From NCBI GenBank assembly GCA_016926535.1, contig JAFGOK010000535.1:1-45830 (forward strand): 45,830 bases of DNA, in the 5' to 3' direction. Shown one piece after another: positions 25,738 to 45,830 of this stretch. The first letter of the stretch is position 1, and the number at the start of each line of letters is the position of its first letter. Under the pieces are notes generated by a model that worked only from the letters and a program-made list of their open reading frames with translations, was not told where the DNA came from and made no database searches. The stretch comes from Micromonosporaceae bacterium (lineage in GTDB: Bacteria; Actinomycetota; Actinomycetes; Mycobacteriales; Micromonosporaceae). The position numbers and the translations under genes were made by a program.

Positions 25738-25738
25738 C

Positions 25739-26506
25739 GTGCCGAGCCGGTGGCAGATTCGCCTGCCTGGGGTCGATGCGGCGCGGGTGACCCCGGAGCA
25801 GGTGCACGCGGTGGTGTCGGGCTGGTTCGACGCGACGGCCGAGGCACACCAGCAGCGGCGGAAGGCGTACTCGGTGTCGATGCCGCAGGTGGCCGACGGC
25901 TCCACGGTCATCGAGGTCGGGCTGGTCGATGACGGCCTGGTCGATCGCCTGTTCGCGGGCGCTGCGCGGGGAACGCGGCTGCGGTTCGGGTCGCAGTGGA
26001 CGGTGCTTGGCCGGGACCCGTACCAGACGGGCGGGATTCCGTGGGGCGAGCTGAACAGGCCGTCTGCGGCCACCGCGTGGGGTTTGCGGTTCGTGACGTT
26101 GACGACGTTCCGGCGGGGCAACGCGTTCACCCCGAATCCGGGGTTGAAGCCGATCCTCGGTGGGCTGCGGCAGGTGTGGAAGACGTGTGCCCCACCGGAC
26201 ATGTCGCCGCTGGTGCTGAATCTGGCCACCGAGCCGGTGTGGCTGACCGCGATCGAGGTCTCCAGCCGGATCGTGCGGGTTGACGGGCGCATCGTGTCGG
26301 GGTTCACCGGCCGGCTGCGCCTGGCCTGCGATGCGCCGGCCGAGGTCGCCGGGGCGGTGGACCGGCTGCTGCGATTGGCCCCGTACTGCGGGGTCGGGGC
26401 GTACACGACCCGAGGGTTCGGCACGGTCCGCCTTGAAACGCCCAGCACCGCACGCCAGGCGGTGCCAGCCGTGCCAGTTCAGTCGGCGACGCCGGTGGCA
26501 CGGTGA
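25739..26506 (+). CDS. cas6: CRISPR RNA endonuclease Cas6 (type III-B associated)
   Basis: GTG start; RAMP-like 'RWQIRLPGVDAARVTPEQVHAVV..'; C-terminal 'APYCGVGAYTTRGFGTVRLE' glycine-rich loop. Confidence 0.8.
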   Translation: MPSRWQIRLPGVDAARVTPEQVHAVVSGWFDATAEAHQQRRKAYSVSMPQVADGSTVIEVGLVDDGLVDRLFAGAARGTRLRFGSQWTVLGRDPYQTGGIPWGELNRPSAATAWGLRFVTLTTFRRGNAFTPNPGLKPILGGLRQVWKTCAPPDMSPLVLNLATEPVWLTAIEVSSRIVRVDGRIVSGFTGRLRLACDAPAEVAGAVDRLLRLAPYCGVGAYTTRGFGTVRLETPSTARQAVPAVPVQSATPVAR

Positions 26507-26507
26507 C

Positions 26508-28382
26508 ATGGGCACCCTACTGGCGACCGTCGCCACCGAGACCGCGCTGACCGAGGCGTGGCAGGACCTCCTCGCAAACGACGAGGCCGACGGGCAGTTG
26601 ACGGTCGGGACCCGCCGGTTCGCCGCCGACGCCCCAGCGGAGATCGCCCGCATGGCCGTTGAGCTGGCTGAGGGCACCTACCGGCCAAGGCCGCTGGCCT
26701 GGGTGGTAATCCCCAAGTCGTCGGGCGGCAGCCGCGACCTGCATATCCCGCCGGTACGCGACCGAATCGTCGAGAAGGCCATCGCTACCGTGCTGACCCC
26801 GATCATCGATCCGCTCCTGGGGCCAGCGTCGTTCGCCTACCGGCCGGGCCTCGGGGTGGCCGACGCCGTGCAACGGGTCGCGCGGCTACGCGACGAGGGC
26901 CTGGCCTGGGCGGTCCGCACCGACATCGACGACTGCTTCCCCACAATCGACACCGCCCGGCTGCGTCGCTTGCTGCAGGTGATGGTCTCCGACACCGACC
27001 TGCTGGCGATCATTGACGCGCTGCTGACTCGCCCGGTGCGCGATGCTCCGGCGCGGCACCGGCTGCGGGGTCTGGCGCAGGGCAGCCCGCTATCCCCGAT
27101 CCTCGTGAACCTGGCCCTGGAACAGGTCGACGACACCGTCCGGGCCGCCGGGTTTCCGTTGGTGCGTTACAGCGACGACCTGGCCATCCTCGCCTCGGGC
27201 CGCGACGAGGCATGGGAAGCCCTGCGCGTTGCGGCCGACGCGGCGAAGGAGATCGCGATGAGTCTCGGCGAGGACAAGACCGCCATCATGTCGTTTGAGG
27301 AGGGCTTCTGCTTCCTCGGCGAGGACTTCGGCCCTCGCTACCCACCGGTGGTCGACACCCACCGGATCGTCGGGCCGGCGGCGAAGACCGTCTACGTCGG
27401 GATGCCCGGCGCCGGGGTGCGGACCGAGGCAGGGCGGATCGTCGTTGAGTCGCCCGATGACGCCGAGTTGCTGTCGGTACCCTCCGGACACGTTGAACGG
27501 CTGGTGCTCTTCGGCCCGGTCGGGCTGAGCGCCGGAGCCCGCTCCTGGGCGCTGACCAACCAGGTCGAGGTCATCCTGGCCTCCCGCCGTGGCGGGTACC
27601 TCGGGCAGCTGTCCGGCGACGGCACCCGCCGGGTCCACCGGTTGCGGGCGCAGCTGGCGGCGGCTGACGACCCGATCCGGGCGGCGGTCCTCGGTCGGGC
27701 GATCGTGGCGGCGAAGGTGGGCAAGCAGATCGTGCTGCTGCAGCGCCAGACCCGCCGCGGCCCGCACGAGACGCTGACCCATGCGATCGCCGCGATGCGG
27801 ACCCTGGTCGGGATGTTGCCCGATGCGACGACCCGTGACGAGATCATGGGGGTTGAGGGTGCCGCCGCCCGGGAGTACTTCACCGCGCTTGGGGCGCTCA
27901 TGCCCGAGCCGCTGCGGTTCGACGGCCGTTCCCGCCGCCCGCCGCTGGATGTGGTCAACGCCGCGCTGTCGCTGGGGTACACGATCCTGTGCGGCGAGGC
28001 CGTCGCCGCGCTCGCCGCGGCGGGCCTGGATCCGGCGATCGGGGTGCTGCACGCCTTGGCTGACCGGCGTCCCAGCCTGGCGCTGGATCTGATGGAGGAG
28101 TTCCGGCCGCTGGTGGTTGACCAGGTCGTGGTCGAGGCGGTCAACAGCGGTCGGTTGAAGCCAGAGCACGGCCGTGTCGATGAGGGGCGTGCTGGGGTTC
28201 TGCTGACCAAGGCCGGTCGGCGGGCGATTGTCGACGGTTATGAGCGGCGGATGCTGCGTACCACTCGGGGTGCGCTGGCGGGTTTCGCCGGTAGCTGGCG
28301 GCGGCATCTGTACCGGCAGGCCCAGGTGATGGCGGCTTGGGTCGACACCGACACCCCCTGGACGGGTCTGTCATGGCGATGA
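26508..28382 (+). CDS. Reverse transcriptase-Cas1 fusion
   Basis: RT motifs 'PKSSGGSRDLHIPPVRDRIVEKAI', 'FAYRPGLGVADAV', 'VRTDIDDCFPTID', 'LAQGSPLSPILVNLAL', 'VRYSDDLAIL', then Cas1 'LSVPSGHVERLVLFGPVGLSAGARSWA', 'VEGAAAREYF', 'IGVLHAL', 'LALDLMEEFRPLVVD'. Confidence 0.93.
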   Translation: MGTLLATVATETALTEAWQDLLANDEADGQLTVGTRRFAADAPAEIARMAVELAEGTYRPRPLAWVVIPKSSGGSRDLHIPPVRDRIVEKAIATVLTPIIDPLLGPASFAYRPGLGVADAVQRVARLRDEGLAWAVRTDIDDCFPTIDTARLRRLLQVMVSDTDLLAIIDALLTRPVRDAPARHRLRGLAQGSPLSPILVNLALEQVDDTVRAAGFPLVRYSDDLAILASGRDEAWEALRVAADAAKEIAMSLGEDKTAIMSFEEGFCFLGEDFGPRYPPVVDTHRIVGPAAKTVYVGMPGAGVRTEAGRIVVESPDDAELLSVPSGHVERLVLFGPVGLSAGARSWALTNQVEVILASRRGGYLGQLSGDGTRRVHRLRAQLAAADDPIRAAVLGRAIVAAKVGKQIVLLQRQTRRGPHETLTHAIAAMRTLVGMLPDATTRDEIMGVEGAAAREYFTALGALMPEPLRFDGRSRRPPLDVVNAALSLGYTILCGEAVAALAAAGLDPAIGVLHALADRRPSLALDLMEEFRPLVVDQVVVEAVNSGRLKPEHGRVDEGRAGVLLTKAGRRAIVDGYERRMLRTTRGALAGFAGSWRRHLYRQAQVMAAWVDTDTPWTGLSWR

Positions 28383-28894: not shown

Positions 28895-29432
28895 GTACAG
28901 AATCACCTCACGCCAAAGGGCGTATAGAAACCCACCATCGGGCAGTTTTTGTCGTGCTTGTCGTTGTACAGAATCACCTCACGCCAAAGGGCGTATAGAA
29001 ACTCGGCACCGTACCGCTTGTGGCGTATTTCTGTCCTGTACAGAATCACCTCACGCCAAAGGGCGTATAGAAACCAGGTGCTGCCGTGAAGTCGCTCGGG
29101 TAGTCGCTTGTACAGAATCACCTCACGCCAAAGGGCGTATAGAAACGGCGCTGTGCGCACGTACACAAAGTTCGTGTACTGGTACAGAATCACCTCACGC
29201 CAAAGGGCGTATAGAAACCCTCCACTGGTGTTGCTCCCCGTGAAGCCAGCCAGTACAGAATCACCTCACGCCAAAGGGCGTATAGAAACAGGAGTAGAAC
29301 GCGAAGAAAGTTGTAGCCATACTTAGGGTACAGAATCACCTCACGCCAAAGGGCGTATAGAAACTCTTACCTGAGCCTACCTACGTGCGAGATAGTCCGG
29401 TACAGAATCACCTCACGCCAAAGGGCGTATAG
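28895..29432 (+). CRISPR. CRISPR array 1 (leader-proximal segment): repeats 1-7 plus the 5' 33 nt of repeat 8
   Basis: 37-nt repeat gtacagaatcacctcacgccaaagggcgtatagaaac at 28895, 28966, 29038, 29110, 29182, 29253, 29328; interrupted copy at 29400-29432. Confidence 0.98.
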
Positions 29433-31003
29433 CGGTCCTCTGTCGTGATCGGGTGGTAGATCGCCGTGTTGAGCGCTATACGTGGTGTAGTGGCTTCTGA
29501 TCGCGCTGGGAGGTGTGTCATGGTCACGCCACGTCTGCCCGTCGATCCCGTTGCGGCCCCGGTGGAGACGTACGCGCTCCAGTTTCGATGACCTGTTCGT
29601 GTCCCGGGCGCAACGACGGGGTTTCCGCGACTACCTGGTCGGTCTGCTGCGACCGAGAGACCGTAACAAGACGCTGACCTGTCTGGCCAACGTGGAACCG
29701 GGACCGGGTGCCCAGTACCGGGAGATGCAACGCTTCCATCAGTTCCTGTCCGACTCTCCCTGGGATCACGAGCGGATCAATACCCGGCGGATCGGGATCC
29801 TGATCGGGGATCCCGAGTTCACCCCGCACCCGATGGGGGCGCTGCTGCTGGACGACTCCGGCGACCGCAAGGCCGGACACGCCACCGCGCACGTCTCACG
29901 GCAGTACATCGGCTCCCGGGGCGGGGTCGAAAACGGGATCGTGGCGGTGTCGACCACCTGGGCCGATGACCGGGTCTACTACCCGCTGCACGTGGTGCCC
30001 TGCACCCCGGCGTGCAGGCTGCCGCTGGGCCGGGTCGATCCCGCCTTCGCCACCAAGGGCCAACTGGCCGCCAGCCTGATTACCAAAGCCCGCGACCTGG
30101 GGATCGTGTTCCGGGCGGTGGTCGCCGACAGCTTCTACGGCCCCTCGGAGTCCCCGAGCCTGGCCAAGGCCCTCATCGATACAGGGGTGCCGTTCGTGTT
30201 GGCCCTCAAACCCCGTCAGGAGATGACGGTGGCCGCCGGTGAGCCGACCACCCCCGCCGAGGCTGCCAGGCTGCGGGCCTGGGAGGGCCCCGACCGGCCA
30301 GGACAGTGGCAGCGGGTGATCCGCACCTACCGCGACGGGCACACCGAGACCTGGTGGGCCACTGATGTCCCCATCGGCCCGTATCGGATCTACGGGCCGC
30401 TGCGCCTGGTCGTGGTGAGCACCGATCCGGCCACGCTGCCGGGGACCAGCACCTGGTACCTGGCCACGAACCTCGCCCACCCCGATCTTCCCGGGGCCGC
30501 AGAGTCGCCGTTCCCACCCGCCACCTACGCGGAGATCACATTCCTGTATGGGCTCCGCGGATGGATCGAGCAGGACTACAAGCAGGTCAAACACGAACTC
30601 GGGTGGGCCGACTTCCAGGTCCGCTCCGACCACGCCATCCGCAGACACTGGACCCTGGTCAACTGCGCCTTCTCCCTGTGCTGGCACGACGACGACCATG
30701 TCCACCCACCAACCACTGACGACGGAGACGGGGACGGAGATGATATGGATGACGGCCGCGGTGTCACCCTGGAACCCGACGCGTCACCGCAGCCTCGGCC
30801 GCCGCGCTCCTTGCCCGCCAGCCTCCGTCGCGTTCGCAGCTGCCTGGCCCCAGCCCACTACCTCGAACGCATCTGGCACGCCTGGACCACCGCCCAGATG
30901 CCATCCGAACTGGTCAAACTGATGGATGCGCTGATGGCAGGACATCGGCTCTGCCTCTACGTCCCGCCATGACCCAACACCACCCGATCACGACAGAGGA
31001 CCG
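29433..31003 (+). mobile_element. IS701-family-like insertion sequence (1571 bp)
   Basis: Perfect 25-bp TIR: left cggtcctctgtcgtgatcgggtggt, right end accacccgatcacgacagaggaccg. Flanked by the 4-bp direct repeat atag (29429-29432 / 31004-31007). Confidence 0.95.
29515..30972 (+). CDS. IS701-family DDE transposase (N-terminus possibly frameshifted)
   Basis: 'GALLLDDSGDRKAGHATAHVSRQYIGSRGGVENGIVAVSTTWADD', 'FRAVVADSFYG', 'LYGLRGWIEQDYKQVKHELGWADFQVRSDHAIRRHWTLV'. Confidence 0.85.
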   Translation: MSWSRHVCPSIPLRPRWRRTRSSFDDLFVSRAQRRGFRDYLVGLLRPRDRNKTLTCLANVEPGPGAQYREMQRFHQFLSDSPWDHERINTRRIGILIGDPEFTPHPMGALLLDDSGDRKAGHATAHVSRQYIGSRGGVENGIVAVSTTWADDRVYYPLHVVPCTPACRLPLGRVDPAFATKGQLAASLITKARDLGIVFRAVVADSFYGPSESPSLAKALIDTGVPFVLALKPRQEMTVAAGEPTTPAEAARLRAWEGPDRPGQWQRVIRTYRDGHTETWWATDVPIGPYRIYGPLRLVVVSTDPATLPGTSTWYLATNLAHPDLPGAAESPFPPATYAEITFLYGLRGWIEQDYKQVKHELGWADFQVRSDHAIRRHWTLVNCAFSLCWHDDDHVHPPTTDDGDGDGDDMDDGRGVTLEPDASPQPRPPRSLPASLRRVRSCLAPAHYLERIWHAWTTAQMPSELVKLMDALMAGHRLCLYVPP

Positions 31004-31299
31004 ATAGAAACTCGGTACCGGCGGCAGCCCTGCGGATGCGCTCGATATGTACAGAGTCACCTCACGCCAAAGGGCGTATAGAAACTTGCGGTTGGCCCCC
31101 ACCGGATTTGGGCCCGAAAGTACAGAGTCACCTCACGCCAAAGGGCGTATAGAAACGGTCCTCGTCGGTATCCCACTCCAGGGTGCCACGTACAGAGTCA
31201 CCTCACGCCAAAGGGCGTATAGAAACGCCTGCTGCGGGCGCGGGCCATAGATGGGAGCGGGTGTACAGAGTCACCTCACGCCAAAGGGCGTATAGAAAC
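31004..31299 (+). CRISPR. CRISPR array 1 (leader-distal segment): 3' end of repeat 8 plus repeats 9-12
   Basis: atagaaac (31004-31011) completes repeat 8; repeats gtacagaGtcacctcacgccaaagggcgtatagaaac at 31049, 31120, 31190, 31263. Confidence 0.97.
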
Positions 31300-31369: not shown

Positions 31370-31876
31370 TGCTGTCAATGTTTCGAGTCCCGCCGTCTTG
31401 AAGTAGCCACGCACGATGTCTGGGAACCCCAGAAGCCGTCGGGCTCTGGCGAGGATTCTGGCTTCCATCTCGGCTCGGGCGCGGGTGGAGTTTCATCCGA
31501 TATCATCCGCTTTGGCGTCCCGTCAGACGAGTTCGTCTGGGTTGAGCTCTGGCGAGTACGGAGGCAACCGAAGGATCCGCAATTGCCCGTCCTTGCCGGC
31601 CAGGTGCTGCTGGAGAGTCTTCGAGCGGTGGTACCCGGCGTTGTCGACGATTAGGAAGACTGGACCGCCCACCTCGGCGAGTAATTTGTCATAGAATTCG
31701 GTGTATGTGCCGGTGTTGCAACGCCCGTCGATGAGGGCGAAGAAGCTCAGGCCCCAGCCGTTGATCGCCGAGATCATGTTGACCGTGGACCGATCGTCGG
31801 CTGTGTGCACAACTGGAGTCCTTCCAGTCGGCGACCAGGTACCTCTGACACCGTGAGATTCGTAGGTTGGGTTCAC
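31370..31876 (-). pseudogene. IS630-family transposase C-terminal remnant
   Basis: 'ESHGVRGTWSPTGRTPVVH...SAINGWGLSFFALIDGRCNTGTYTEFYDKLLAEVGGPVFLIVDNAGYHRSKTLQQHL...LRLPPYSPELNPDELV' (DDE_3), then a premature TGA; an Arg-rich tail 'NSTRARAEMEARILARARRLLGFPDIVRGYFKTAGLETLTA' continues after a second stop. Confidence 0.75.
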
Positions 31877-32013
31877 TCGAAAGGGGTATCGATCGGCGTT
31901 GCTCGACTGGACTGCGCTTCTTTAGGCTTCTCCGGGGCCGAGGTTGGCGGCACTTTTCGCAGGGGCCTTGGCGATTGGGGCGCATGGCGTCGGCGTCGTC
32001 AGGGTGCTTGACG

Positions 32014-32085
32014 TGCCCAGGTGGGGCATCGCAATGCTGGACTGCGTTTCTGCAGGTCATCATCCCTTCAGGGATGTGGCGTTTT
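32014..32085 (+). ncRNA. candidate crRNA-like element (degenerate repeat - short spacer - degenerate repeat), CreA/CreR-like
   Basis: psiR1 32014-32035: stem tgccc/gggca followed by tcgcaat (array 2 repeat: stem followed by cgcaac). psiS 32036-32054. psiR2 32055-32075: gtcatcatccct-tc-agggat, same 6-bp stem as the array 2 repeat, with a divergent 3' tail and a T-run. Confidence 0.4.
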
Positions 32086-32187
32086 TGATCTCGTTGTTCG
32101 TCCACTTGGTACATAGCAGTTTCTGTCGGTGTCGGCTGGTAGTCCTACTCCGGGCGGCGAGACAGGTTCATGCCTGGGGAGGTATGT

Positions 32188-32877
32188 ATGCGGTTCTATG
32201 TGGATGTCTCTGCCTCGGCTGGTGAGCTGCCCTGGAAATACGTCCACGGCGCGGCTCACGCGGTGGTCTACACCGTGTTGGGGGCCGACGCTCCGAAGCT
32301 GGCCGAGCAGCTGCATGAGCACGGGTGGGCGGAGACCTCGCTGCGACCATTGGGCGTTTCGCCGCCGGTGTTCAGCGGCGCACCGCGCAAGCCAAGTGTC
32401 TACGCGACCTCGGGCAGGGGCCGTCTGTGGTTCGGGTCGCCGATCCCCGAGCTTGCGGCGGCGCTACTGGCCGGCGTCACCAGGCGAGAGCGGCTGCAGT
32501 GGGGGCCGCTGACCCTGACCGTCGAGGGCACGAAGCTGGAGGTTCCTGCGGAACCAGTGGATTCGGCGCTGCTCACCTGCTGCACCCCAGTACTCGTCAA
32601 GGCTGACGGGGGCCGCTACGTCCTGCCGCAGGAGACCGGATTCGTCGAGGCGTTGTCCGCGAACACTCAGCGCAAGGCTGACCTGCTGGGGCTCCCCGGT
32701 GATGTGGACCTTGAGGTGGTGACGTCCGGTCCACGCCGCGCCTACGAGGTGTCGGGAGGGACACGGTTTGGTGCGACCGCGACCCTCCGAATCCACGCTG
32801 ATCCACGACTGATTGCCGCGCTGCGGGAGTGGGGCCTTGGCATGGGGAACATTCAGGGATTCGGATGGGTTCGGTGA
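32188..32877 (+). CDS. cas6: Cas6 (type I-B-like system)
   Basis: 'MRFYVDVSASAGELPWKYVHGAAHAVVYTVLG', 'PIPELAAALLAGV', C-terminal 'RLIAALREWGLGMGNIQGFGWVR' (G-rich loop). Confidence 0.85.
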   Translation: MRFYVDVSASAGELPWKYVHGAAHAVVYTVLGADAPKLAEQLHEHGWAETSLRPLGVSPPVFSGAPRKPSVYATSGRGRLWFGSPIPELAAALLAGVTRRERLQWGPLTLTVEGTKLEVPAEPVDSALLTCCTPVLVKADGGRYVLPQETGFVEALSANTQRKADLLGLPGDVDLEVVTSGPRRAYEVSGGTRFGATATLRIHADPRLIAALREWGLGMGNIQGFGWVR

Positions 32878-34319
32878 ACCCGGCCGGTTCGGCCCCGGTG
32901 ACGCTGACCGCGCATCCGCTTCAGCGGTGCGGGGCCTGGGCGATCGCCGTGCTCGCCGAGCGGGCAGAACCAGGCGATGTGAGTCCAGCGGACCTCGACG
33001 CGGTCGCGGCGCGCCTGGTCGAGGACGTTCTGGCAGCGTCGTGCCTGCCGAAGAACGCCAGTAGCCCGGACTGGTGGAAAGTCCTGTTCGCGCTCTATCC
33101 GAATGCGAAGGCGACGCACGCGTCGCGCTCGCGGGACGCACAGGTGCTGCGGCCGGAGGTGTCCGACCTGTTCGCTCCCGAGGAGGGCAGTGTCCCAGGG
33201 CTGCCCTGCACGTTCTGCTCGGCGCCGGCGTCGCGACGGTGGGCGAAGTCGAATCTGCCGATGTTCGACTCGAACAAGGCCCTGAATACCCTGCCCCCGG
33301 GATTGGACGGATGGCCGTTGTGCCGTGGTTGCCGGGTGGCGATGTGGGCGCTGCCCTACGGGGCGTGGGTCACCCTGGGCTCTGCGACGGTGCTGATGTG
33401 CGGAAACCCTGAGGTGGAGCGCGCTTTCGTCGAGCGCAACGTCCGGCGTGCCCGGCGTATCCAGCAACTGGGGATGACTGGGGTGCCAGCCGATGCGTGT
33501 GCGGAGACGGTGACGCTGGCGGCGCTGCGTTCGGTTGCCGGTGACGTCCCGGTCGATGCGGTCCTGTGGTCCTTCAAGAACGACAACCAGGAGCCGTGGC
33601 TGCGGGTGACCGGGACTCGGCAGGCGGTCGGTTCCCTGCTGAGCCGGATCGAGTCCCACCCCGCACTCCGCGACGGCTGGAGACGGCTGCGTCGTGCGCT
33701 GGGTCGCCGCGACAAACGGGTCGGCGGGTACTCCGCGATTGCGAGAACGCTGTTCAACGAGGAACAGCAACGTGCCGACCGGCTACTACAGGTGCTCAGA
33801 AAGGAATTCGCCACCCCGCCCAAGGATCCGGCCGCTGTGGACGGATGGCGACGCCTGGCGCGCGCCTATCAGGAGGAAATGTACGGAATGGATGTCGAAC
33901 GTCTGGTCCCAGCCCGCCAACTGCTGGCCACGTGGATCCTGTCCGAACGCAACCCGCGTGGCCGGTTCAACGAGTATGACAAGGTCGCGACGCGTCCGTA
34001 CGACCTGGCCGCGCTGTTGAAGGGCGCCGCGGCCCGTCTGCTTCGCGACGGTCACAATCCGCCGGACATCACTGGGGTCCTGCCCACGCTGCTGTCGGCA
34101 GGCCCGGACGGCTGGCGGTTGCGGGCCCAACTGTTCTTCGAGGTGGTGGCCGAATTGGTGGCTGCGAAGGCGGCCATCGGTGCCAGGCCGGACGACGAGG
34201 ACCCCGACGACGCCACCGTTGACGCCACCGACACCGCCGTCGGCCACACCGACGACGCCACCGATGGCGAATCCGAACGGCTGGAGTTCGAACCCGATGA
34301 GGAAGGAGCGTATGCCTGA
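32865..34319 (+). CDS. cas8: Cas8 (Cst1/Cas8a1-type) large subunit of type I-B/I-A Cascade
   Basis: Two zinc-binding pairs 'CTFCSAPASRRWAKSNLPMFDSNKALNTLPPGLDGWPLCRGCRVAMWALPYGAW' typical of Cst1-like Cas8; operon position between cas6 and cas7. Confidence 0.75.
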   Translation: MGSVNPAGSAPVTLTAHPLQRCGAWAIAVLAERAEPGDVSPADLDAVAARLVEDVLAASCLPKNASSPDWWKVLFALYPNAKATHASRSRDAQVLRPEVSDLFAPEEGSVPGLPCTFCSAPASRRWAKSNLPMFDSNKALNTLPPGLDGWPLCRGCRVAMWALPYGAWVTLGSATVLMCGNPEVERAFVERNVRRARRIQQLGMTGVPADACAETVTLAALRSVAGDVPVDAVLWSFKNDNQEPWLRVTGTRQAVGSLLSRIESHPALRDGWRRLRRALGRRDKRVGGYSAIARTLFNEEQQRADRLLQVLRKEFATPPKDPAAVDGWRRLARAYQEEMYGMDVERLVPARQLLATWILSERNPRGRFNEYDKVATRPYDLAALLKGAAARLLRDGHNPPDITGVLPTLLSAGPDGWRLRAQLFFEVVAELVAAKAAIGARPDDEDPDDATVDATDTAVGHTDDATDGESERLEFEPDEEGAYA

Positions 34320-35380
34320 TGGCATACCTGGCAGGCAAACTCGTGCTGGCGGTGACAGCGGGTGCGCCGAACAACGGCAGGGGAGAGGCGACCACCGGCC
34401 GCGTCAAGAAGGCGCAGATCCGTCAGCAGACGTATCCGTATGTGTCAGCGCAGGCCTTCCGGCGCTGGCTGCGTGACTCGATGACCGATGCTGGCATGGA
34501 AACCTCGCCCACCCAGCGGGTCGGGAAGAAGGAAGGCAAGGCGCAGAAGGCCACGACCGCAGCCGACCCGGTGCGCTACGCCGACGATGACCTGTTCGGC
34601 TATCTCAAGGCGACAGCCAAGGCCGACGACGCGGCCACGACCCTGCGCGATACCCCGTTCATGATGGGCACATTGCTGGCGGTCGAACCGGCGCGGCCGA
34701 CCGAGGATTTCGGGGTGATGTCGCGGGGCATCGACGAGCCGGTGCTCCATGCGCACGAGTTCTACACGGCCGACCTCGCCGCGCCGTTCCTGCTGGATCT
34801 GCCGCGGATCGGCACGTTTACCCTGCCCCAGCAACGAGGCTCCGGTCGGGCCAACTACCTGACCGCCGAGGCGGCGATGCAGGCGGCTGCTGCGGTGAGT
34901 CTTGGCGCGCAGGTGATCGTGTTCCGGGGCCAGGACGCCGTGCGGCTGCCGATCGAGATCCGCCGGGACCGGGCGGCCCTCGTGCTCGAAGCCCTGGCGG
35001 CGATCTCCGGTGGCGCGAAGAAGAGCATGCACTACGGCGACCGCACCCCGGCCATGCTGATGCTGGTGCCCATGGCCGGCGGCGTCAACCCGCTCGAATT
35101 CACGATCGGTGGCGCCGAAGACGGTTCTGGCCTGCAGGTCCGCGCCGATGCCTTGCGGGCGGAGCTGCGCGCCTGGCACGACCAGTGGCAGGCGCCGGTA
35201 CGGGTCGGCTGGCGGCCCGGCTTCAAGGAGATCACCCGCAAACAGTTCGAGGCAGATCTCGCACAGGAGATCAGGGACGGGCAGGTACGGATCGATCACC
35301 CGCGCACGCTGCTGCGGGATCTGGCTGCCGAGCTGCGCGCTGGTGAACACGACGCCTGGTTTGACGACCCCGCCCGATGA
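34319..35380 (+). CDS. cas7: Cas7 (Cst2/DevR family)
   Basis: 'AYLAGKLVLAVTAGAPNNGRGEATTGRVKKAQIRQQTYPYVSAQAFRRWLRDSM' and 'SGGAKKSMHYGDRTPAMLMLVPM'. Confidence 0.88.
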   Translation: MAYLAGKLVLAVTAGAPNNGRGEATTGRVKKAQIRQQTYPYVSAQAFRRWLRDSMTDAGMETSPTQRVGKKEGKAQKATTAADPVRYADDDLFGYLKATAKADDAATTLRDTPFMMGTLLAVEPARPTEDFGVMSRGIDEPVLHAHEFYTADLAAPFLLDLPRIGTFTLPQQRGSGRANYLTAEAAMQAAAAVSLGAQVIVFRGQDAVRLPIEIRRDRAALVLEALAAISGGAKKSMHYGDRTPAMLMLVPMAGGVNPLEFTIGGAEDGSGLQVRADALRAELRAWHDQWQAPVRVGWRPGFKEITRKQFEADLAQEIRDGQVRIDHPRTLLRDLAAELRAGEHDAWFDDPAR

Positions 35381-36111
35381 CCAGCGCATCTTCGGCCAGC
35401 GCACCTTCGACGAGCGCATCTTCGGCGGGCTGCTCGGGCGTCGACGCCGTGCGGGTGGAGCTGTTCGCGCCGATCGCCTCGTTCCGTGATCCGATGGTTC
35501 CCGGGCTGACCCGTTGCCTGCCGGTCCCTCCACCGTCCTGTTTGCGCGGCATGCTGGCCGCGGCCAGTGGCGCCCCCGCTGAGGCGGTGGCCCTCGGGTA
35601 CAGTGCCTGGGCCGCCGGGTCCGGAGTGGACGCGCAAACCTACCACCCGATCGCGTCCAACGGTTCGAATCCCTCGATCCGGGGCAGGGTTCGGGCGATC
35701 AAGGGTGGGATGACGCTCAGGGATCGACCATTCCTGGCGCATCTGACGGTGACCCTGTGGATCCCCATGCCCGACGGGGAGCGGCTCGCCAGCGCCCTGC
35801 GGCGTCCCGTCTGGGGGCTTCGACTCGGACGCAGCGAGGACCTGGTCCATGTCCGGTCGACCACCCAGGTGCGGTTGCATCCCGCCGAGGAGGCGCACGT
35901 CGGGCACGCCTTGGCCCCGGTGGGCGGCCACCGGGCCGGTACCGCGATTACGGTGCGGATGGCCGAACGCATCAGCAGCGATCGACTGGTCACTACTTAC
36001 GGCAACTACCTGTGGAGTGCCGAACCCATCGGCCGGGTGCCGGTCGTCGGCGCGCTGCGCGACGGCGACCAGGCCGTCTGGCTTGATCACCCGCCGCAAC
36101 AGCCACGATGA
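35377..36111 (+). CDS. cas5: Cas5 (Cas5t-like)
   Basis: 'VRVELFAPIASFRDPMVPGLTRCLPVPPPSCLRGMLAAASG' and 'RPVWGLRLGRSEDLVHV'. Confidence 0.85.
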   Translation: MTSASSASAPSTSASSAGCSGVDAVRVELFAPIASFRDPMVPGLTRCLPVPPPSCLRGMLAAASGAPAEAVALGYSAWAAGSGVDAQTYHPIASNGSNPSIRGRVRAIKGGMTLRDRPFLAHLTVTLWIPMPDGERLASALRRPVWGLRLGRSEDLVHVRSTTQVRLHPAEEAHVGHALAPVGGHRAGTAITVRMAERISSDRLVTTYGNYLWSAEPIGRVPVVGALRDGDQAVWLDHPPQQPR

Positions 36112-38516
36112 CCACTGAACCAGGCAGCGACCGGCTCCTCGACCAGCTGTGGGCGAAGTCGGCTCGCCCCACGTCACCGCCGGCACCCGGCCACCGGGCG
36201 GAACGGCTGACCGAGCACTGCCGCACCACCGCTGATGCGGGCCGCCTCATCGCCGCCCGCATCAGCGGCGCGGGAGTCCTCGCATCATTCCCACGATTCT
36301 GGCCGCTGGTCTGCTACGCCTGCCTGCTGCACGACGCGGGCAAGATCGCCCAGGGTTTCCAGCGGCAGGTCCACCCGGGCGGCGGCCGGTGGGGCGAGCG
36401 GCACGAGGTGCTGTCGCTGGCCTATGTCCAGCTGCTCACCGGGCACCTCGATTCCGACGAGCGGGCCCTGGTCGCCGCCGGTGTCGGGTTGCATCACCGG
36501 TGGCTGCGGTCCGCCTACGGTACCGGAGCGCTCCGTGACCTGTATCCGCCGACGGCAGCGTGGGAACGCAAATTCGGCTATGACCCCCACTCGCCGCCTG
36601 GGCAGCCACACGGGCAGGTCCCCGTCGGCTGCCATGACGCCCTCCTCCACTGGTACGCCACGCAGCTGGGCCTGGACATCCCGCCCAGCGGCGGGGCCAA
36701 GCTGTGGCAACGCGCCCGTGACCAGTTCACCGAACTCCTGGATACCTGGGACACCACGGTCTGCGCCGAGACGGGCCTGCTCGCGGTGCTCTTCCAGGGC
36801 GCGGTCACCCTCGCCGACCATTCGGCCTCGGCGCACGTCAGGTTGCAGACCCACCTGCCACTGCGACGCGACTACTGTGACCGGCTGCCCTATCGGCCCC
36901 ACCCGCACCAGCAGGCGGCATCCGAGACCGAGGGGCACCTGATCGTGGTGGCGCCCACCGGTTCGGGCAAGACCGAAACGGGCCTGATCTGGGCGGCGCG
37001 ACAGCTGTCGACGATGCCCGGACAACCCCGGGTCGTCTGGACCCTGCCGTACCGCGCTTCGATCAACGCGACCGCCAGGATCTTCACCCGCACGCTGCAA
37101 CCGGCGCCGGGGGAGTCGGCACCCGAGATCGGCATCCTGCACGGCGCCGCAGCCCTGACCGTCCTGGCCGACGCCGTCAACGACGCCTCCACCGCGACTG
37201 CCGAAGCAGCGCGGCAGGCCACGGCACGCACCGGAGCCATGCGACTGTTCGCCCAGCGATTCCGCGTCGCCACCGCCTACCAGCTCCTGCTCGGTGCCAT
37301 CGCTGGCCCGAAGTACTCCAGTGTCCTCCTTGAACAGGCCAACAGCCTGGTGATCCTTGACGAGTTGCACGCCTACGACCCGCAGACCTTCGGCAGGATC
37401 TGCGCTGCGATGCGACTATGGGAGCAGCTGGGAAGCCGCGTCGCGGTCCTGTCGGCCACCCTTGCCCCACCGATGGTCGAGTTGATCCGTCAGACGCTGG
37501 ACCAGCCGGTTACGGTGCACCGCGCCCCGACGGGCACCGCACCCGATCGCCACCGACTCGTCCTCGACGAACAACCGATCACCGATCCGCGCAGCCTGGA
37601 CATTTTCCGCCGCTGGCTGGTGGCGGGCCACAGTGTCCTCCTGGTCGCCAACACCGTCGCCACCGCGCAGGAGCTCTATCGCATGCTGGCACCCGACGCC
37701 CGGCATCCCGGCCGGGCCGACGACCCCGATGCGGCGATTCTCCTGCATTCTCGGTTCCGGGGCCGTGACCGTAACGCGATCGAGCAGCGGCTCCTGGCCC
37801 GCCATGGCGAACGCCAGCCACACACCCGCCCCAGGCGCGGTGGGCTGGTCGTGGCGACCCAGGTCGTCGAAGTGTCATTGCGTCTGGATTTCGACCGAGG
37901 CGCAACCGAGTTGGCGCCCATCGAAGCCGTGGCGCAACGCGCAGGCCGCGTCAACCGGCTCGGCCTGCATCCCGAGGGGCCCGTCGAGTACCGCGTCCAC
38001 CGTGGTGACGACAGACCGTACGACCGGCAATCCCTGGAAGCGGCCTGGAATGCGTTGCGTGCTGCGCCAGGGCCGACCATCTCCGAGCAGACCATCGACA
38101 CCTGGCTTTCCCTTGCCTATCAGACCCCCTGGGGAAAGGGGTGGGACCACCGTGCCAGGGAAAGCCGGGACGCGTTCACCCGCGATTTTTTGACCTTCAC
38201 CGATCCGTTCACCGATCGCGAAGAATATGCCAGAGGACTGCGGGAATCCTTCGACACAGTCGAGGTTCTCCTTGAGCAGGACCGAAGCGAATACCAGCGA
38301 CTCACCGCTGGCCCCGACGGGCATGCCCTGCTGGGCGCGGATCTCCTGATCCCGATCACCTACCGGCAGTGGCAGCGGATCGGGTCCAGCGCGGGGGCCA
38401 TCGGGAAGGACCGTCATATACCAGTGATCGACGTTCCATACAGCGAGGAAACGGGCCTTCAACTGGATGCGGCCCGCCCAGCGACCACCTCACCCTCCAC
38501 GGAGACCATCTTGTGA
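36108..38516 (+). CDS. cas3: Cas3 HD nuclease-helicase
   Basis: HD 'CYACLLHDAGKIAQGFQRQ', Walker A 'IVVAPTGSGKTETGLIWA', 'LVILDELHAYDP', 'ATQVVEVSLRLDFDRGATELAPIEAVAQRAGRVNR'. Confidence 0.95.
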   Translation: MTTEPGSDRLLDQLWAKSARPTSPPAPGHRAERLTEHCRTTADAGRLIAARISGAGVLASFPRFWPLVCYACLLHDAGKIAQGFQRQVHPGGGRWGERHEVLSLAYVQLLTGHLDSDERALVAAGVGLHHRWLRSAYGTGALRDLYPPTAAWERKFGYDPHSPPGQPHGQVPVGCHDALLHWYATQLGLDIPPSGGAKLWQRARDQFTELLDTWDTTVCAETGLLAVLFQGAVTLADHSASAHVRLQTHLPLRRDYCDRLPYRPHPHQQAASETEGHLIVVAPTGSGKTETGLIWAARQLSTMPGQPRVVWTLPYRASINATARIFTRTLQPAPGESAPEIGILHGAAALTVLADAVNDASTATAEAARQATARTGAMRLFAQRFRVATAYQLLLGAIAGPKYSSVLLEQANSLVILDELHAYDPQTFGRICAAMRLWEQLGSRVAVLSATLAPPMVELIRQTLDQPVTVHRAPTGTAPDRHRLVLDEQPITDPRSLDIFRRWLVAGHSVLLVANTVATAQELYRMLAPDARHPGRADDPDAAILLHSRFRGRDRNAIEQRLLARHGERQPHTRPRRGGLVVATQVVEVSLRLDFDRGATELAPIEAVAQRAGRVNRLGLHPEGPVEYRVHRGDDRPYDRQSLEAAWNALRAAPGPTISEQTIDTWLSLAYQTPWGKGWDHRARESRDAFTRDFLTFTDPFTDREEYARGLRESFDTVEVLLEQDRSEYQRLTAGPDGHALLGADLLIPITYRQWQRIGSSAGAIGKDRHIPVIDVPYSEETGLQLDAARPATTSPSTETIL

Positions 38517-39016
38517 ACGGCGACGAAGACGACATCGGCGGAGTCCACATCAAGTACCTGCTGCACTGCCACCGCCAACTCTGGCTCTACAGCCGCGGCT
38601 ACCGTCCCGAATCCCGCAACGAGGACGTGGCCTTCGGCGAATCCGTCAACGACACCACCTACCGCCGCCACCACGAAGTCGATCTCGGTGCTGCGAAAAT
38701 CGACTGGGTCACCGTTGGCGCCATCGTCCACGAGACGAAATCCTCCCGCCGACCCTCACCCCAGCACGACGCCCAAGCCCTGCACTACTGCCTGCTGCTG
38801 GCCCGCCGCAGCATCACCGTGCGGGGTGCGCACGTGCACTACCCCCTGATCCGGCGTACCACGAAACTCGCCTGGGACACCGCAGCCCGACGATCCGCCG
38901 AGGCGACCGAGGAACACGCCCGCCGGGTCATCGCCGCCGCCACACCCGCCGCCCGCCTGCCCCGCAGCAGTTGCCGGGGCTGCTCCTACCTCGACTACTG
39001 CTGGGGTGAATCATGA
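38513..39016 (+). CDS. cas4: Cas4 nuclease
   Basis: GTG start overlapping the cas3 stop; 'IKYLLHCHRQLWLYSRG', 'VGAIVHETKSSRR', C-terminal 'CRGCSYLDYCWG' Cys cluster. Confidence 0.92.
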   Translation: MNGDEDDIGGVHIKYLLHCHRQLWLYSRGYRPESRNEDVAFGESVNDTTYRRHHEVDLGAAKIDWVTVGAIVHETKSSRRPSPQHDAQALHYCLLLARRSITVRGAHVHYPLIRRTTKLAWDTAARRSAEATEEHARRVIAAATPAARLPRSSCRGCSYLDYCWGES

Positions 39017-39993
39017 GTGCCGCAGGACGCTCCTACTGGCTGACCGAGCCATGCCGGATCCGGCGCGAGGACAACAGCATCCGCATCGAACGAGCCGACG
39101 GAGCACCGGTCCGGATACCGATCACCGACATCCGTGACCTGGTCACCTTCGACCACGTCGACCTCAACACCGCAGCCGTCTCCCTCCTGAGCAGACATCA
39201 GGTGGCCGTGCACATCCTCGACCACTACGGCAACTACGCCGGCATGCTCGCTCCGGCAGAGGACATGGCCTCGGCGCACGTGATCCGCGCCCAGGTCACC
39301 CTGACTGGTGATGATCACACCCGCTTGAGCGTCGCCCGCGGCCTCGTCACGGCGACTGCCGCAAACGTCGCCTGGGCGCTGAACACCGACCTGCTGGACG
39401 AACCCCTGCGTCGGCTTCCAGACCAAGTCGCGGCGTGCACCTCGACGGGCGATCTCATGGGGATTGAAGGTAACTTCCGACGTACCGCCTGGGGTGTTCT
39501 CGACACCCTGCTCCCGCCCTGGCTGCGGCTTGACGGACGTACCCGGCGACCACCCAGCAACGCCGGCAACGCCTTCATCAGCTATCTCAACGCGATCACC
39601 TACGCCCGGGTGCTCACCGCAATCCGCTGTACCCCTCTGTCGCCCGCCATCGGGTTCCTGCACGCCGACACCGACAGACGGCGCAACACGCTTGCCCTCG
39701 ACCTGGCCGAGCCGTTCAAGCCCTTGTTCGCGGAACGACTGCTGCGCCGCGCCGCCGCGCAGAAGACCCTCACTGCGGGTGATTTCGTCAGCGACGTGCG
39801 AAGCGCCTCGCTGAGCCCCGCCGGGAGGAAGAAGATCGCCGTGATGGTCCGTGAGGAACTGGCAACAACCATCTATCACCGCGCGCTGCGCCGGAAGGTT
39901 TCGTATGAGGAGCTTTTGCACCTTGAGGCACTTAAGGTGGTCCATCTCTGCCTCGAAGACCAGCCCTACAAGCCGTTCCGGCCGTGGTGGTGA
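39013..39993 (+). CDS. cas1: Cas1 integrase (type I-B-like)
   Basis: 'YWLTEPCRIRREDNSIRIER', 'LMGIEGNFRRTAW', 'IGFLHADTDRRRNTLALDLAEPFKPLFAE'. Confidence 0.95.
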   Translation: MSAAGRSYWLTEPCRIRREDNSIRIERADGAPVRIPITDIRDLVTFDHVDLNTAAVSLLSRHQVAVHILDHYGNYAGMLAPAEDMASAHVIRAQVTLTGDDHTRLSVARGLVTATAANVAWALNTDLLDEPLRRLPDQVAACTSTGDLMGIEGNFRRTAWGVLDTLLPPWLRLDGRTRRPPSNAGNAFISYLNAITYARVLTAIRCTPLSPAIGFLHADTDRRRNTLALDLAEPFKPLFAERLLRRAAAQKTLTAGDFVSDVRSASLSPAGRKKIAVMVREELATTIYHRALRRKVSYEELLHLEALKVVHLCLEDQPYKPFRPWW

Positions 39994-39996
39994 ACG

Positions 39997-40260
39997 GTGT
40001 TCGTCATTCTGGTCTACGACACGGCTGCGGAAAGAAACCCGGCCGTGCTGAGAACCTGCCGTCAGTACCTTCACTGGGTCCAGCGCAGTGTCTTCCAGGG
40101 CGAACTCTCTGCGGCGCAGTATCGTAACCTGAGCGAGGCCCTCCGGCGGCAACTCGACCTGAGCTACGACAGCATCCGTGTCTATGCCATCGGATCACCC
40201 CACCTTGTGCAGATCGAGGCATTCGGAGCCGAACTTGGCCATTCAGATTCAGTGCTCTGA
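39997..40260 (+). CDS. cas2: Cas2
   Basis: 'MFVILVYDTAAERNPAVLRTCRQYLHWVQRSVFQGELSAAQYRNL' (GTG start). Confidence 0.93.
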   Translation: MFVILVYDTAAERNPAVLRTCRQYLHWVQRSVFQGELSAAQYRNLSEALRRQLDLSYDSIRVYAIGSPHLVQIEAFGAELGHSDSVL

Positions 40261-40349: not shown

Positions 40350-43300
40350 GTCGATCATCATCCCTGGAGGGATCGCAACTCCAGCTGAAGGCCATGGCCA
40401 AGCGCGGCTTCGTGTGTCGATCATCATCCCTGGAGGGATCGCAACTGGATCGACAATCCGGCTGTATGCCGTGGCCGTCATGTCGATCATCATCCCTGGA
40501 GGGATCGCAACACGTATCCACCCTGGCGGTTGCTGACAGCGTAGTAAGTCGATCATCATCCCTGGAGGGATCGCAACCGGTCGGCAAGGGCATATCCGAC
40601 ACCGGCGTCGACATGTCGATCATCATCCCTGGAGGGATCGCAACGATCTCAACCCAAGCCCAGCGCGTCACCTGGCCAAGTCGATCATCATCCCTGGAGG
40701 GATCGCAACGTGGGCAGGTGTTGTGCCTGGTGAATGCGTAGCCGCGTCGATCATCATCCCTGGAGGGATCGCAACGTCTTCCGCGCCCCAACGGGCATGG
40801 TCACCTGATGTCGATCATCATCCCTGGAGGGATCGCAACATGATCGTGCCGAGGCGCTGGTCGCGCTGATAGGGGGTCGATCATCATCCCTGGAGGGATC
40901 GCAACATGGTTTCGATGATCGCGACCCACCGGGACACCATTGTCGATCATCATCCCTGGAGGGATCGCAACCGGAGCGCCTGGGTACGGGCGCGGCGGTG
41001 GGCGGGTCGATCATCATCCCTGGAGGGATCGCAACACGATCGAGGTCTGGTTGACGGCCTGGATGACGGGAGTCGATCATCATCCCTGGAGGGATCGCAA
41101 CACAGTTACTTTCTGTTACGAACAGTGGTGGTGATGATGTCGATCATCATCCCTGGAGGGATCGCAACGAACCTGGCAGTCCGTTTAATGTCCGCCAACC
41201 AGTCGATCATCATCCCTGGAGGGATCGCAACGCGGTGCGTTTCAGCACATTGAACTGATCTTTCATGTCGATCATCATCCCTGGAGGGATCGCAACTGGT
41301 TCAGTTGCTCAATCAACCCGTAGTTGATCACGTCGATCATCATCCCTGGAGGGATCGCAACCTTGGCAGCCGTTTCGGTTCGGACACGGAGTAGGCCTGT
41401 CGATCATCATCCCTGGAGGGATCGCAACAAGTCAAAATCCACTGTGGTTCCCCTCCCGTCTAGTCGATCATCATCCCTGGAGGGATCGCAACACGCGCGC
41501 TCGGCCTCGCCGGAACCCGCCTCGTCCCGTCGATCATCATCCCTGGAGGGATCGCAACGACCTCGGTGCGTGTCTCCGCGTACTGCTCCACCAGGTCGAT
41601 CATCATCCCTGGAGGGATCGCAACACGATGATCAGCACCAACACGTTTGCCACCGTGGGCGAGTCGATCATCATCCCTGGAGGGATCGCAACACGTTGGC
41701 CGATCCATCTGGGGTGAAGATCATCAGGTGTCGATCATCATCCCTGGAGGGATCGCAACGTCCACACCTGGGTGCCACCACGGGGCTCGTTAACATGTTG
41801 ATCATCATCCCTGGAGGGATCGCAACGGGTACTCGCCGAGGATCCGCAGCACCCGGGCACGGGTCGATCATCATCCCTGGGGGGATCGCAACACCCATAC
41901 TCACTGGTCATCCTCAGCTGCGGCTCGTCGATCATCATCCCTGGGGGGATCGCAACGCGATGCGGTGCCCGAGCACCCTCCACGGGTGCTGGTCGATCAT
42001 CATCCCTGGAGGGATCGCAACGGTTGTGGATGTTGACCGGTTTGTTGCACGGGCGTGGTCGATCATCATCCCTGGAGGGATCGCAACCCGGAGTCGCGGC
42101 CGTCTGGCTCAACATGCCATATGGTCGATCATCATCCCTGGAGGGATCGCAACTAAGCAGACGGTCCGACCGCACCCCACACGTAGGGCGTCGATCATCA
42201 TCCCTGGAGGGATCGCAACGCGAGGGCTGACATCTTCTCGGACTGCTCATAGGCCGTCGATCATCATCCCTGGAGGGATCGCAACGGTGGGAGTCCCCAG
42301 CAGCCTGGGGCGCAGCGTGAGGTCGATCATCATCCCTGGAGGGATCGCAACGTAAAACGAGAATTTCTGATAGTGCATTTTCTCACTGTCGATCATCATC
42401 CCTGGAGGGATCGCAACGTGTAGGTGTGCTGACGTACGGGGATCCTGGGCATGTCGATCATCATCCCTGGAGGGATCGCAACGCGTCCGGCACGATGCCG
42501 AGCGCGGTGGCTGAGAGGGTCGATCATCATCCCTGGAGGGATCGCAACCCCGCCCACCGTTAGCGGCAGCGTTACCACCAACGCGTCGATCATCATCCCT
42601 GGAGGGATCGCAACAGGTACCACAGGTCGGCGCGGCTGAGTCGGTCTGTTGTCGATCATCATCCCTGGAGGGATCGCAACGCATTAGTAACGACCTGGAT
42701 CGCCGCAATGAACAAGTCGATCATCATCCCTGGAGGGATCGCAACACGCGGGTGCGTATGCCACTACGCACCCGCATAGGGGTCGATCATCATCCCTGGA
42801 GGGATCGCAACAGCGATGAAATCCTGCGGTCCCATGTGCTCATGAGCACGTCGATCATCATCTCTGGAGGGATCGCAACGCGGGGCAACCACCCCACGTG
42901 GCGCCGGCACCCCGTGTCGATCATCATCCCTGGAGGGATCGCAACGCGAGCGTTGCGGTTCCTGATGCTGGCGCGGTGCCTGTCGATCATCATCCCTGGA
43001 GGGATCGCAACCCTACCTGGCGACCATCAGCGGCCCGGCCTGCGACTGGTCGATCATCATCCCTGGAGGGATCGCAACGTGGTCTTCCCGGTTGCCTTGA
43101 TCATTGTTCCGTTGTCGATCATCATCCCTGGAGGGATCGCAACGCGGTCCCGGTCCGCTGGGTTCTGTTTGGAGCTCTTGTCGATCATCATCCCTGGAGG
43201 GATCGCAACATCAGGACCACCGTGAGCGCGTAGCACAGCAGCATGTCGATCATCATCCCTGGAGGGATCGCAACCTGGTCACAGCGGTGAAGGCCTCGCC

Positions 43301-45713
43301 GATGGCGATGTGTCGATCATCATCCCTGGAGGGATCGCAACATCCATCGCAACCACGCTGGCCCGAGCGAACTCTGGTCGATCATCATCCCTGGAGGGAT
43401 CGCAACGCTTCTTTGGACATTTCGGCGATGATCCATTGGAGTCGATCATCATCCCTGGAGGGATCGCAACGGGAGATCGGCGACGAGACAATGCGCCGCC
43501 GTGCTGTCGATCATCATCCCTGGAGGGATCGCAACCCGTTGCCGTAGCCCCAGCCGCTGCCGTTGCCCCAGGTCGATCATCATCCCTGGAGGGATCGCAA
43601 CAGGAGATCCTGGAATTCGACCAGGTCCTCGTAGTCGTCGATCATCATCCCTGGAGGGATCGCAACACGATCTCCCCCTCGTTGGCGGTGTCGTCGAGGG
43701 TCGTCGATCATCATCCCTGGAGGGATCGCAACGTGACCAACTGGCGGATAGCCTGACGGATCGGTTCGTCGATCATCATCCCTGGAGGGATCGCAACCCG
43801 ATCTCGTGGGCGGCGATCCGTGCCGCGCTCCGCGTCGATCATCATCCCTGGAGGGATCGCAACAGGATGGCACCCGTCGGGTCGACGTCGATGACCTCAT
43901 GTCGATCATCATCCCTGGAGGGATCGCAACGCCATCCCGCCGGCGGCCGAGCAGGCCACGTTGCTGGTCGATCATCATCCCTGGAGGGATCGCAACAGGA
44001 GCACGGGCACCGGTTCGGACTGACCCTCGCCGTCGATCATCATCCCTGGAGGGATCGCAACAGGGGGAACCAGCGGTGATCGGCGACGGCACCACGGGTC
44101 GATCATCATCCCTGGAGGGATCGCAACCGGACATCATGGGGGCGGACCGGCGATGATGCTCGTCGATCATCATCCCTGGAGGGATCGCAACACGCGCGCC
44201 GTGGCACCGGGCCTGAGAGTTGCCTTCGTCGATCATCATCCCTGGAGGGATCGCAACGCGAAGCCCAGAAGGACACCTGACTTAGCCCGCCCAGTCGATC
44301 ATCATCCCTGGAGGGATCGCAACCCGAACGTGACCTGGCGTGGGACGGCACGGCCGCTGGTCGATCATCATCCCTGGAGGGATCGCAACTCGTTCACTAC
44401 GGCGGCTCTCTGCCAGGTACAGGAGGTCGATCATCATCCCTGGAGGGATCGCAACGTGGACCTGATTTTGATGTCGGTCACGGCTGTTCCTGTCGATCAT
44501 CATCCCTGGAGGGATCGCAACCCGTCGGGGAACCCGCTGCTGTTCGCGGTGAACCTCGTCGATCATCATCCCTGGAGGGATCGCAACAAGGCTGGGCCGA
44601 TGAGTCGGGCGGCGTGGGCGGAGGTCGATCATCATTTCTGGAGGGATCGCAACCCGCAACGTACCCGCAGTTCCGGCACATCAACGGTGTCGATCATCAT
44701 CCCTGGAGGGATCGCAACGGGATCTCCACGTCTTCTCCAACCACCACGTACATCAGGTCGATCATCATCCCTGGAGGGATCGCAACCCGACACCAAACCA
44801 CCAGGCTGCCGCTCCTGGCCACGTCGATCATCATCCCTGGAGGGATCGCAACTCCCACTGCTGAGGCGTCACGCTGTCTTTGAGGTACGTCGATCATCAT
44901 CTCTGGAGGGATCGCAACATGTACAGGCACAGGGTTCGGAAGATTTCGGCGTCGTCGATCATTATCCCTGGAGGGATCGCAACCACGGCCCGAACGGGAT
45001 GCACATGGCAGCGGGGTCAAGTCGATCATCATCCCTGGAGGGATCGCAACGGTGAACATGGCTGAGAGATAGTCGGCGTATCCACGTCGATCATCATCCC
45101 TGGAGGGATCGCAACCACCACCTGCCTGACTGCTGCTAGGCGTCTCTGGGAGTCGATCATCATCCCTGGAGGGATCGCAACATCGCGTTCGCCACAGCAA
45201 CGACCGAGTTCCTTGCCGTCGATCATCATCCCTGGAGGGATCGCAACGGCAGGTGGGTGTCCCCGGCACAGCCGATGCCGTTCGTCGATCATCATCCCTG
45301 GAGGGATCACAACCGGCGCATCCCGCGAGTTCTTGCAGCACTATTTTTTGTCGATCATCATCCCTGGAGGGATCGCAACCCCATGATGTTGGCGGGGATG
45401 ACGGTGGATGGTCCTGTCGATCATCATCCCTGGAGGGATCGCAACTAGTGGCGGAGTACGCGGGTGAGGTTGTTCCAGCCGGGTCGATCATCATCCCTGG
45501 AGGGATCGCAACCCGATCTCGTTTCTGGCGATTTTCGTGTTGTCTGCCGTCGATCATCATCCCTGGAGGGATCGCAACTACACCTGGCAGCCGCTGTGTG
45601 GTGGGCACCGGGCCTGTCGATCATCATCCCTGCCTGGAGGGATCGCAACATCAGCATGGCTCCGCACCAAGCGCACCGTTGGCTGTCAATCATCATTCCT
45701 GGAAAGATCACAG
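40350..45713 (+). CRISPR. CRISPR array 2: about 82 copies of a 30-nt repeat, about 81 spacers
   Basis: Repeat gtcgatcatcatccctggagggatcgcaac (stem atccct-gg-agggat, 3' tail cgcaac), spacing about 65-67 bp, counted by hand. First repeat 40350, last full-length repeat 45616-45649 (4-nt insertion), degenerate terminal repeat 45684-45713. Confidence 0.98.
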
Positions 45714-45830
45714 CGTCTGCCCCTCCCAGGCGGCCGGTACAGCAGGCGGCTGGCTGGATCTGGCTCGGTCTGGACGAAACCGTTGGCGAGATACCCGGGG
45801 AGGAGACGTTCGTCGCGGGCGACGGCGGCG

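What the first reader, a model, noticed from the sequence alone, without database searches (positions are those of the whole stretch)
31899..32085. Candidate CreA/CreR-like crRNA regulator upstream of the type I cas operon, with a matching target inside a promoter-like site
Seen directly: upstream of cas6 (32188) lie two degenerate copies of the array 2 repeat. psiR1 (32014-32035: tgccc-aggtg-gggca-tcgcaat) keeps a hairpin and the 3' handle-like 'tcgcaa'. psiR2 (32052-32075: gcaggtcatc-atccct-tc-agggat) matches 19 of the first 24 repeat positions and none of the last 6. The roughly 19-nt segment between them (ctggactgcgtttctgcag, 32037-32055) matches 31907-31925 (ctggactgcgcttctttag) at 16/19, with the first 10 nt perfect. 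That site sits exactly between ttgctc (31899-31904) and taggct (31923-31928), which have -35/-10-like spacing (18 bp) and a typical actinobacterial -10. Homology does not extend beyond these 19 nt, so a simple duplication is less likely. Established knowledge: CreA/CreR RNAs are degenerate mini-CRISPRs near cas genes that guide Cascade to a promoter through a short seed match, repressing a toxin RNA (CreT) or cas genes. Inference: this is such a module, with the 31929-32013 interval a possible creT.
Basis: partly seen in the sequence, partly recalled or inferred. Interest (0 to 1): 0.85.

Follow-up and report, generated by a model that had tools for sequence, protein, structure and literature searches.

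The report
crRNA-like guide upstream of cas operon
In front of a bacterial CRISPR immune operon lies a worn-down one-spacer CRISPR whose guide matches a promoter-side site just upstream of itself, and a distant relative keeps the same guide and target, so the immune system probably uses it to switch down its own production.

Summary
Upstream of cas6 of a type I-B operon (actinobacterium, probably Micromonosporaceae) lie two oppositely degenerated repeat copies around a 16-nt psi-spacer. This psi-spacer matches a unique site about 130 bp upstream. The decisive new evidence is Mangrovihabitans endophyticus, another genus of the same family. It carries the same module at the same place: handle ATCGCAAT plus guide GCTGGnCTGCG, with the target on the same side. 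The surrounding DNA is otherwise not alignable. The two guides differ first at positions 6 and 12. Guide and target in Mangrovihabitans disagree only at 6, 12 and 18 within the first 19 nt, the positions that Cascade flips out. Both targets carry 5'-TCG, a functional PAM of an actinomycete I-B system and the flank of the best protospacer candidates. The degeneration pattern is that published for creA genes. Nothing supports a creT toxin: in Mangrovihabitans only about 40 nt separate target and psiR1, with no short closed ORF. Cas6 follows about 60 nt after psiR2. The best reading is a CreR-type autorepressor of the cas operon. It is a new member of a known kind, found in 2 loci; the other I-B loci examined lack it. 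Promoter, transcript and repression are inferred.

The parts
31903..31905 (+). PAM TCG (CTCG conserved with Mangrovihabitans)
   Evidence: TCG functional in S. spinosa I-B (PMC12231136); flank of protospacer candidates
31906..31921 (+). Target (protospacer) of the psi-spacer, ACTGGACTGCGCTTCT: matches guide positions 2-11 and 13-16, mismatch at 1 (G:T wobble) and 12
31899..31928 (+).
31867..31880 (+). TGGGTtCACTCGA block, also present 27-28 nt upstream of the CTCG PAM in Mangrovihabitans; possible promoter or regulator element
   Evidence: sequence print; inference
32006..32035 (+). psiR1: degenerate repeat, hairpin TGCCC/GGGCA plus 8-nt handle ATCGCAAT (7/8); predicted Cas6 cut between 32027 and 32028
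   Evidence: cut site inferred from the 8-nt handle rule
32036..32051 (+). psiS, 16-nt guide GCTGGACTGCGTTTCT
32052..32081 (+). psiR2: degenerate repeat, first 22 nt 17/22 (3' handle), last 8 nt 2/8; hairpin 32061-32076 with a T-run after it, may also terminate
32188..32877 (+). cas6, first gene of the I-B operon
32829..40260 (+). cas8-like (32829), cas7/Cst2 (34319), cas5 (35377), cas3 (36108), cas4-position gene (38467), cas1b (39013), cas2 (39997)
   Evidence: cas8- and cas4-position genes had no family hit and cas2 was not scanned; all three named by position and conservation in relatives
40350..45714 (+). CRISPR array 2, about 80 copies of GTCGATCATCATCCCTGGAGGGATCGCAAC, the parent repeat of psiR1/psiR2

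Best explanation
A crRNA-like regulatory RNA of the CreR kind. A transcript from the promoter region around 31870-31930 carries psiR1-psiS-psiR2; Cas6 cuts it into a small RNA with an 8-nt 5' handle, a short guide and a 22-nt 3' handle. Loaded on type I-B Cascade, it binds TCG plus the matching site at 31903-31921 by seed pairing alone. This is too short or too mismatched to call in Cas3, so Cascade sits on the promoter or first transcribed bases and represses the transcript that holds the guide and the cas operon. The loop would relax when Cascade is titrated by crRNAs or inhibited. Shown: anatomy, conserved guide/target pair, 5+1 mismatch pattern, PAM match, uniqueness of the target, operon order. 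Inferred: transcription, processing, repression, and that the repressed gene is cas rather than a toxin.
For: Same module upstream of cas6 in Mangrovihabitans. Guide plus handle perfect only in these two of 12 family genomes tested; among 399 genomes of the order the only perfect handle-T-guide copy is our own. Flanks not alignable while the 19-nt handle-guide block is 18/19 identical. Guide/target mismatches at 6, 12, 18. Null tests. Target unique in each genome. TCG PAM. psiR1/psiR2 divergent degeneration as published for creA. The guide matches no array spacer (best 11/16). No closed mini-ORF in the creT interval. Short psiR2-to-cas6 distance in the relative, same strand, no consensus promoter seen between. 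Short spacers repress without interference in a I-B system (PMC10989794).
Against: Only two loci; M. antibiotica and other relatives with cas6-first I-B operons lack it. Guide position 1 is a G:T wobble in the window, and position 1 was essential in H. hubeiense CreA. psiS is 16 nt in the window, where repression by a designed 16-nt spacer was weak in H. hispanica. No consensus promoter was found at the target either. A separate cas promoter downstream of psiR2 (32085-32170) is not excluded in the window, and a T-run after psiR2 might end the guide transcript before cas6.
Confidence: 0.63

Rival explanations
1. CreTA: the guide represses a small toxic RNA (creT) made from the interval between target and psiR1; loss of Cascade releases the toxin.
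For: Same guide architecture as CreA; RNA toxins are poorly conserved and some creT genes lack a recognisable ORF.
Against: Interval 31922-32005 versus about 40 nt in Mangrovihabitans, no convincing sequence in common, no closed mini-ORF with rare codons; cas6 follows directly downstream.
Confidence: 0.15
2. A decayed one-spacer array that happens to match a nearby site, no longer functional.
For: Both repeats degenerate; most relatives lack it; the window match alone has a chance of about 3e-4 per position.
Against: Guide and target both kept in two genera while flanks diverged, with changes at 6 and 12.
Confidence: 0.1
3. The two similar boxes are a direct repeat bound by a protein regulator and psiR2 is just a terminator.
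For: Hairpin plus T-run at 32061-32085; two direct boxes upstream of an operon.
Against: One box is fused to a near-exact 8-nt crRNA handle in both species; box mismatches fall on positions 6 and 12; psiR2 in the relative keeps repeat sequence without a T-run.
Confidence: 0.07
4. CrePA-like: the guide represses a nearby protein toxin.
For: CrePA uses the same guide logic.
Against: The upstream window gene is a DDE_3 transposase fragment on the other strand and no such gene abuts the target in the relative; the gene downstream on the same strand is cas6.
Confidence: 0.05

Closest known systems
CreR (crRNA-like autorepressor of cas operons, type I and V-A)
   Same: crRNA-like guide near cas, target near the presumed cas promoter, cas operon directly downstream, no toxin gene
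   Different: Known to me only through reviews here (PMC12737573, PMC12948488); the primary paper was not held. Found here in actinobacterial I-B; repression not shown.
CreA of CreTA (H. hispanica and H. hubeiense type I-B)
   Same: psiR1-psiS-psiR2, 8-nt handle kept in psiR1, first 22 nt kept in psiR2, seed pairing at 1-5 and 7-11, PAM at the target, target upstream of the guide
   Different: No creT found; cas6 lies directly downstream; guide position 1 is a wobble in the window copy
Francisella scaRNA/Cas9 repression
   Same: Degenerate-repeat RNA repurposes a CRISPR effector for repression
   Different: Different effector (Cas9, type II), target elsewhere in the genome

Membership tests
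CreR | crRNA-like RNA gene with degenerate repeat(s) at the cas locus | tested here: met
CreR | Guide partially matches the promoter of the cas operon with a PAM | tested here: inconclusive
   Match and TCG PAM met; that the site is the cas promoter is inferred from layout
CreR | Represses cas transcription through Cascade, relieved by crRNA or Acr | not testable with these tools
   needs expression data
CreR | Not coupled to a toxin gene | tested here: met
   no closed ORF or conserved sequence in the interval; an RNA-only toxin is not excluded
CreTA | Two divergent psiR flanking psiS with seed match (1-5, 7-11) to a promoter | tested here: inconclusive
   Repeats and seed match met (10/10 in Mangrovihabitans, 9/10 plus one wobble in the window); that the target is a promoter is inferred
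CreTA | creT between promoter and creA (mini-ORF with tandem rare codons in the two characterised groups) | tested here: not met
   interval about 40 nt in the relative
Canonical CRISPR mini-array | Two near-identical repeats with a normal-length spacer | tested here: not met
   psiR1 versus psiR2 11/30; psiS 16 nt versus mostly 34-38 nt spacers

The most novel reading that the evidence does not exclude
A CreR lineage special to actinobacterial type I-B systems in which the guide sits inside the 5' leader of its own cas mRNA, so that Cas6 cutting of the leader both makes the repressor and trims the cas transcript, giving a direct Cas6/Cascade-level sensor.
Probability: 0.3. Interest if true: 0.65.

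Novelty: new member of a known kind. Interest (0 to 1): 0.52.

Why it matters
It gives a testable RNA-guided autoregulation circuit in actinomycetes, where a 2025 review (PMC12231136) lists few experimentally studied CRISPR systems. The two-genus pair is a clean natural example of a Cascade seed footprint (5+1 periodicity) under selection. It also shows how such elements can be found: handle conservation plus a nearby match that ignores every sixth base.

Tried and rejected
Single-sequence Cas6 scan of genome contigs found nothing; the alignment scan found 8 loci. Family I-B loci L046-L048 scanned for ectopic repeats: none like this (that script stopped with an error before L049 and L050, whose regions upstream of cas6 were read). 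Streptomyces L023/L025: one repeat-like element with handle at -82 of cas6 but no target in 10 kb, not counted. 24 cas6 loci from a class-wide sample: no convincing guide/target pair outside arrays. Second near-match in Mangrovihabitans (C1:90339) lies in what reads as a coding stretch, apparently chance. Spacer search in phages for the first half of the window spacers: no match. Rfam: no hit. A coding explanation of the conserved block (SQCWxA in frame in both species) was rejected because the variable bases 6 and 12 are first-codon, non-synonymous positions.

Full report
OBSERVATION. The window holds a complete-looking type I-B operon: cas6 32188, a cas8-position gene 32829, Cst2/Cas7 34319, cas5 35377, cas3 36108, a cas4-position gene 38467, cas1b 39013, cas2 39997. 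It is followed by an array of about 80 repeats GTCGATCATCATCCCTGGAGGGATCGCAAC.

ANATOMY. psiR1 (32006-32035) keeps only the last 8 nt, ATCGCAAT (7/8), behind a hairpin; its first 22 nt match 7/22. psiR2 (32052-32081) keeps the first 22 nt (17/22) and loses the last 8 (2/8). psiR1 and psiR2 share 11/30. That is the published signature of two-repeat creA genes, whose psiR1 gives the 8-nt 5' handle and psiR2 the 22-nt 3' handle (PMC8501985). The exact psiR2 core is found in the whole 4.9-Mb assembly only in array copies, an array remnant on contig C471 and here.

RELATIVE. A family-wide Cas6 search (355 genomes) gave relatives. One, G026, identified through its contig length and sequence as Mangrovihabitans endophyticus, carries the same module upstream of cas6. 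Its psiR1 is 14/22 + 7/8 and psiR2 18/22 + 3/8 to its own repeat. The handle plus guide ATCGCAATGCTGGnCTGCG is identical apart from position 6. In register, the 19-nt handle-guide block is 18/19 identical while blocks 60-120 nt away are at background, and the rest of the intergenic DNA does not align convincingly. Cas6 is 57% and Cas7 79% identical, so the guide is kept far better than unconstrained DNA. The family is called Micromonosporaceae because its named members are Micromonospora, Plantactinospora and Mangrovihabitans; the window genome itself is unnamed.

GUIDE AND TARGET. Mangrovihabitans: matches at 1-5, 7-11, 13-17 and 19; mismatches at 6, 12, 18, then loss of match. Window: matches at 2-11 and 13-16; mismatches at 1 (G against T on the paired strand, a wobble), 12, 17, 18. 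Every sixth base of a crRNA is flipped out in Cascade and does not pair (established knowledge). In H. hubeiense CreA, positions 1-5 and 7-11 are needed and 6 and 12 are free. By arithmetic, three mismatches among 19 positions all falling on the three multiples of six has a chance of 1/969. The target (TCG plus matching seed) is unique in each genome.

CHANCE. Any window position finds an equally good partner 60-200 nt upstream in 12 of 37,179 cases; a Markov null gives 68 of 200,000, and 0 of 200,000 for the Mangrovihabitans level. Outside arrays, the Mangrovihabitans locus has no other 10/10 core match.

PAM. Both targets have 5'-CTCG. The type I-B system of Saccharopolyspora spinosa accepts TCG, CCG, TCC, TCT and CCT (review PMC12231136). 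The best protospacer candidates found here (32/36 in G088; 33/38 in Arthrobacter phage Bauer for an M. antibiotica spacer) are both flanked by TCG. These are few and imperfect, so they count as weak support.

WHICH GENE IS REPRESSED. Target, guide and cas6 lie on one strand in this order in both species. In Mangrovihabitans about 40 nt separate target and psiR1 and about 60 nt separate psiR2 and cas6. No short ORF closes between target and psiR1 in either and no convincing sequence is shared there. A creT of the known mini-ORF type is therefore not supported. The simplest layout is one promoter near the target that drives guide and cas genes. A second cas promoter at 32085-32170 in the window cannot be excluded.

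DISTRIBUTION. Other family I-B loci, Streptomyces and a class-wide sample lack the pair. The element is therefore sporadic, and the conclusion rests on two loci.

VERDICT. A real crRNA-like regulatory guide (my estimate about 0.85), most likely a CreR-type autorepressor of the cas operon (0.63). New member of a known kind. Primary CreR papers were not available, so membership is judged against reviews.

Noticed in passing
window 29400-31050: An IS701-family element (transposase 29515-30972, ends CGGTCCTCTGTCGTGA / TCACGACAGAGGACCG) sits inside a repeat of array 1, with ATAG on both sides like a 4-bp target duplication.
   Followed up: no
window 25487-28382: A second CRISPR system with a separate Cas6 and a reverse transcriptase-Cas1 fusion next to array 1.
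   Followed up: no
window 45616-45714 and L051 (G000:C471): The worn end of array 2 (repeat with an insertion, then GTCAATCATCATTCCTGGAAAGATCACAGC) recurs with small changes on another contig, as a second array remnant.
   Followed up: partly
L023 and L025, about 100 to 74 nt before cas6: Two Streptomyces I-B loci keep one repeat-like element (CTCATCACC...GTCGCAAT, GTCGGAAT in L025) just before cas6; no matching target was found within the locus.
   Followed up: partly
L080, -339 from cas6: A solitary repeat-like end CTCCCTGGAGGGATCGCAAC upstream of cas6 in another I-B locus, without a target match.
   Followed up: no
window 31867-31880 and L045 about 10783-10795: TGGGTtCACTCGA is shared at nearly equal distance upstream of the target in both species; possible promoter or regulator site.
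   Followed up: partly
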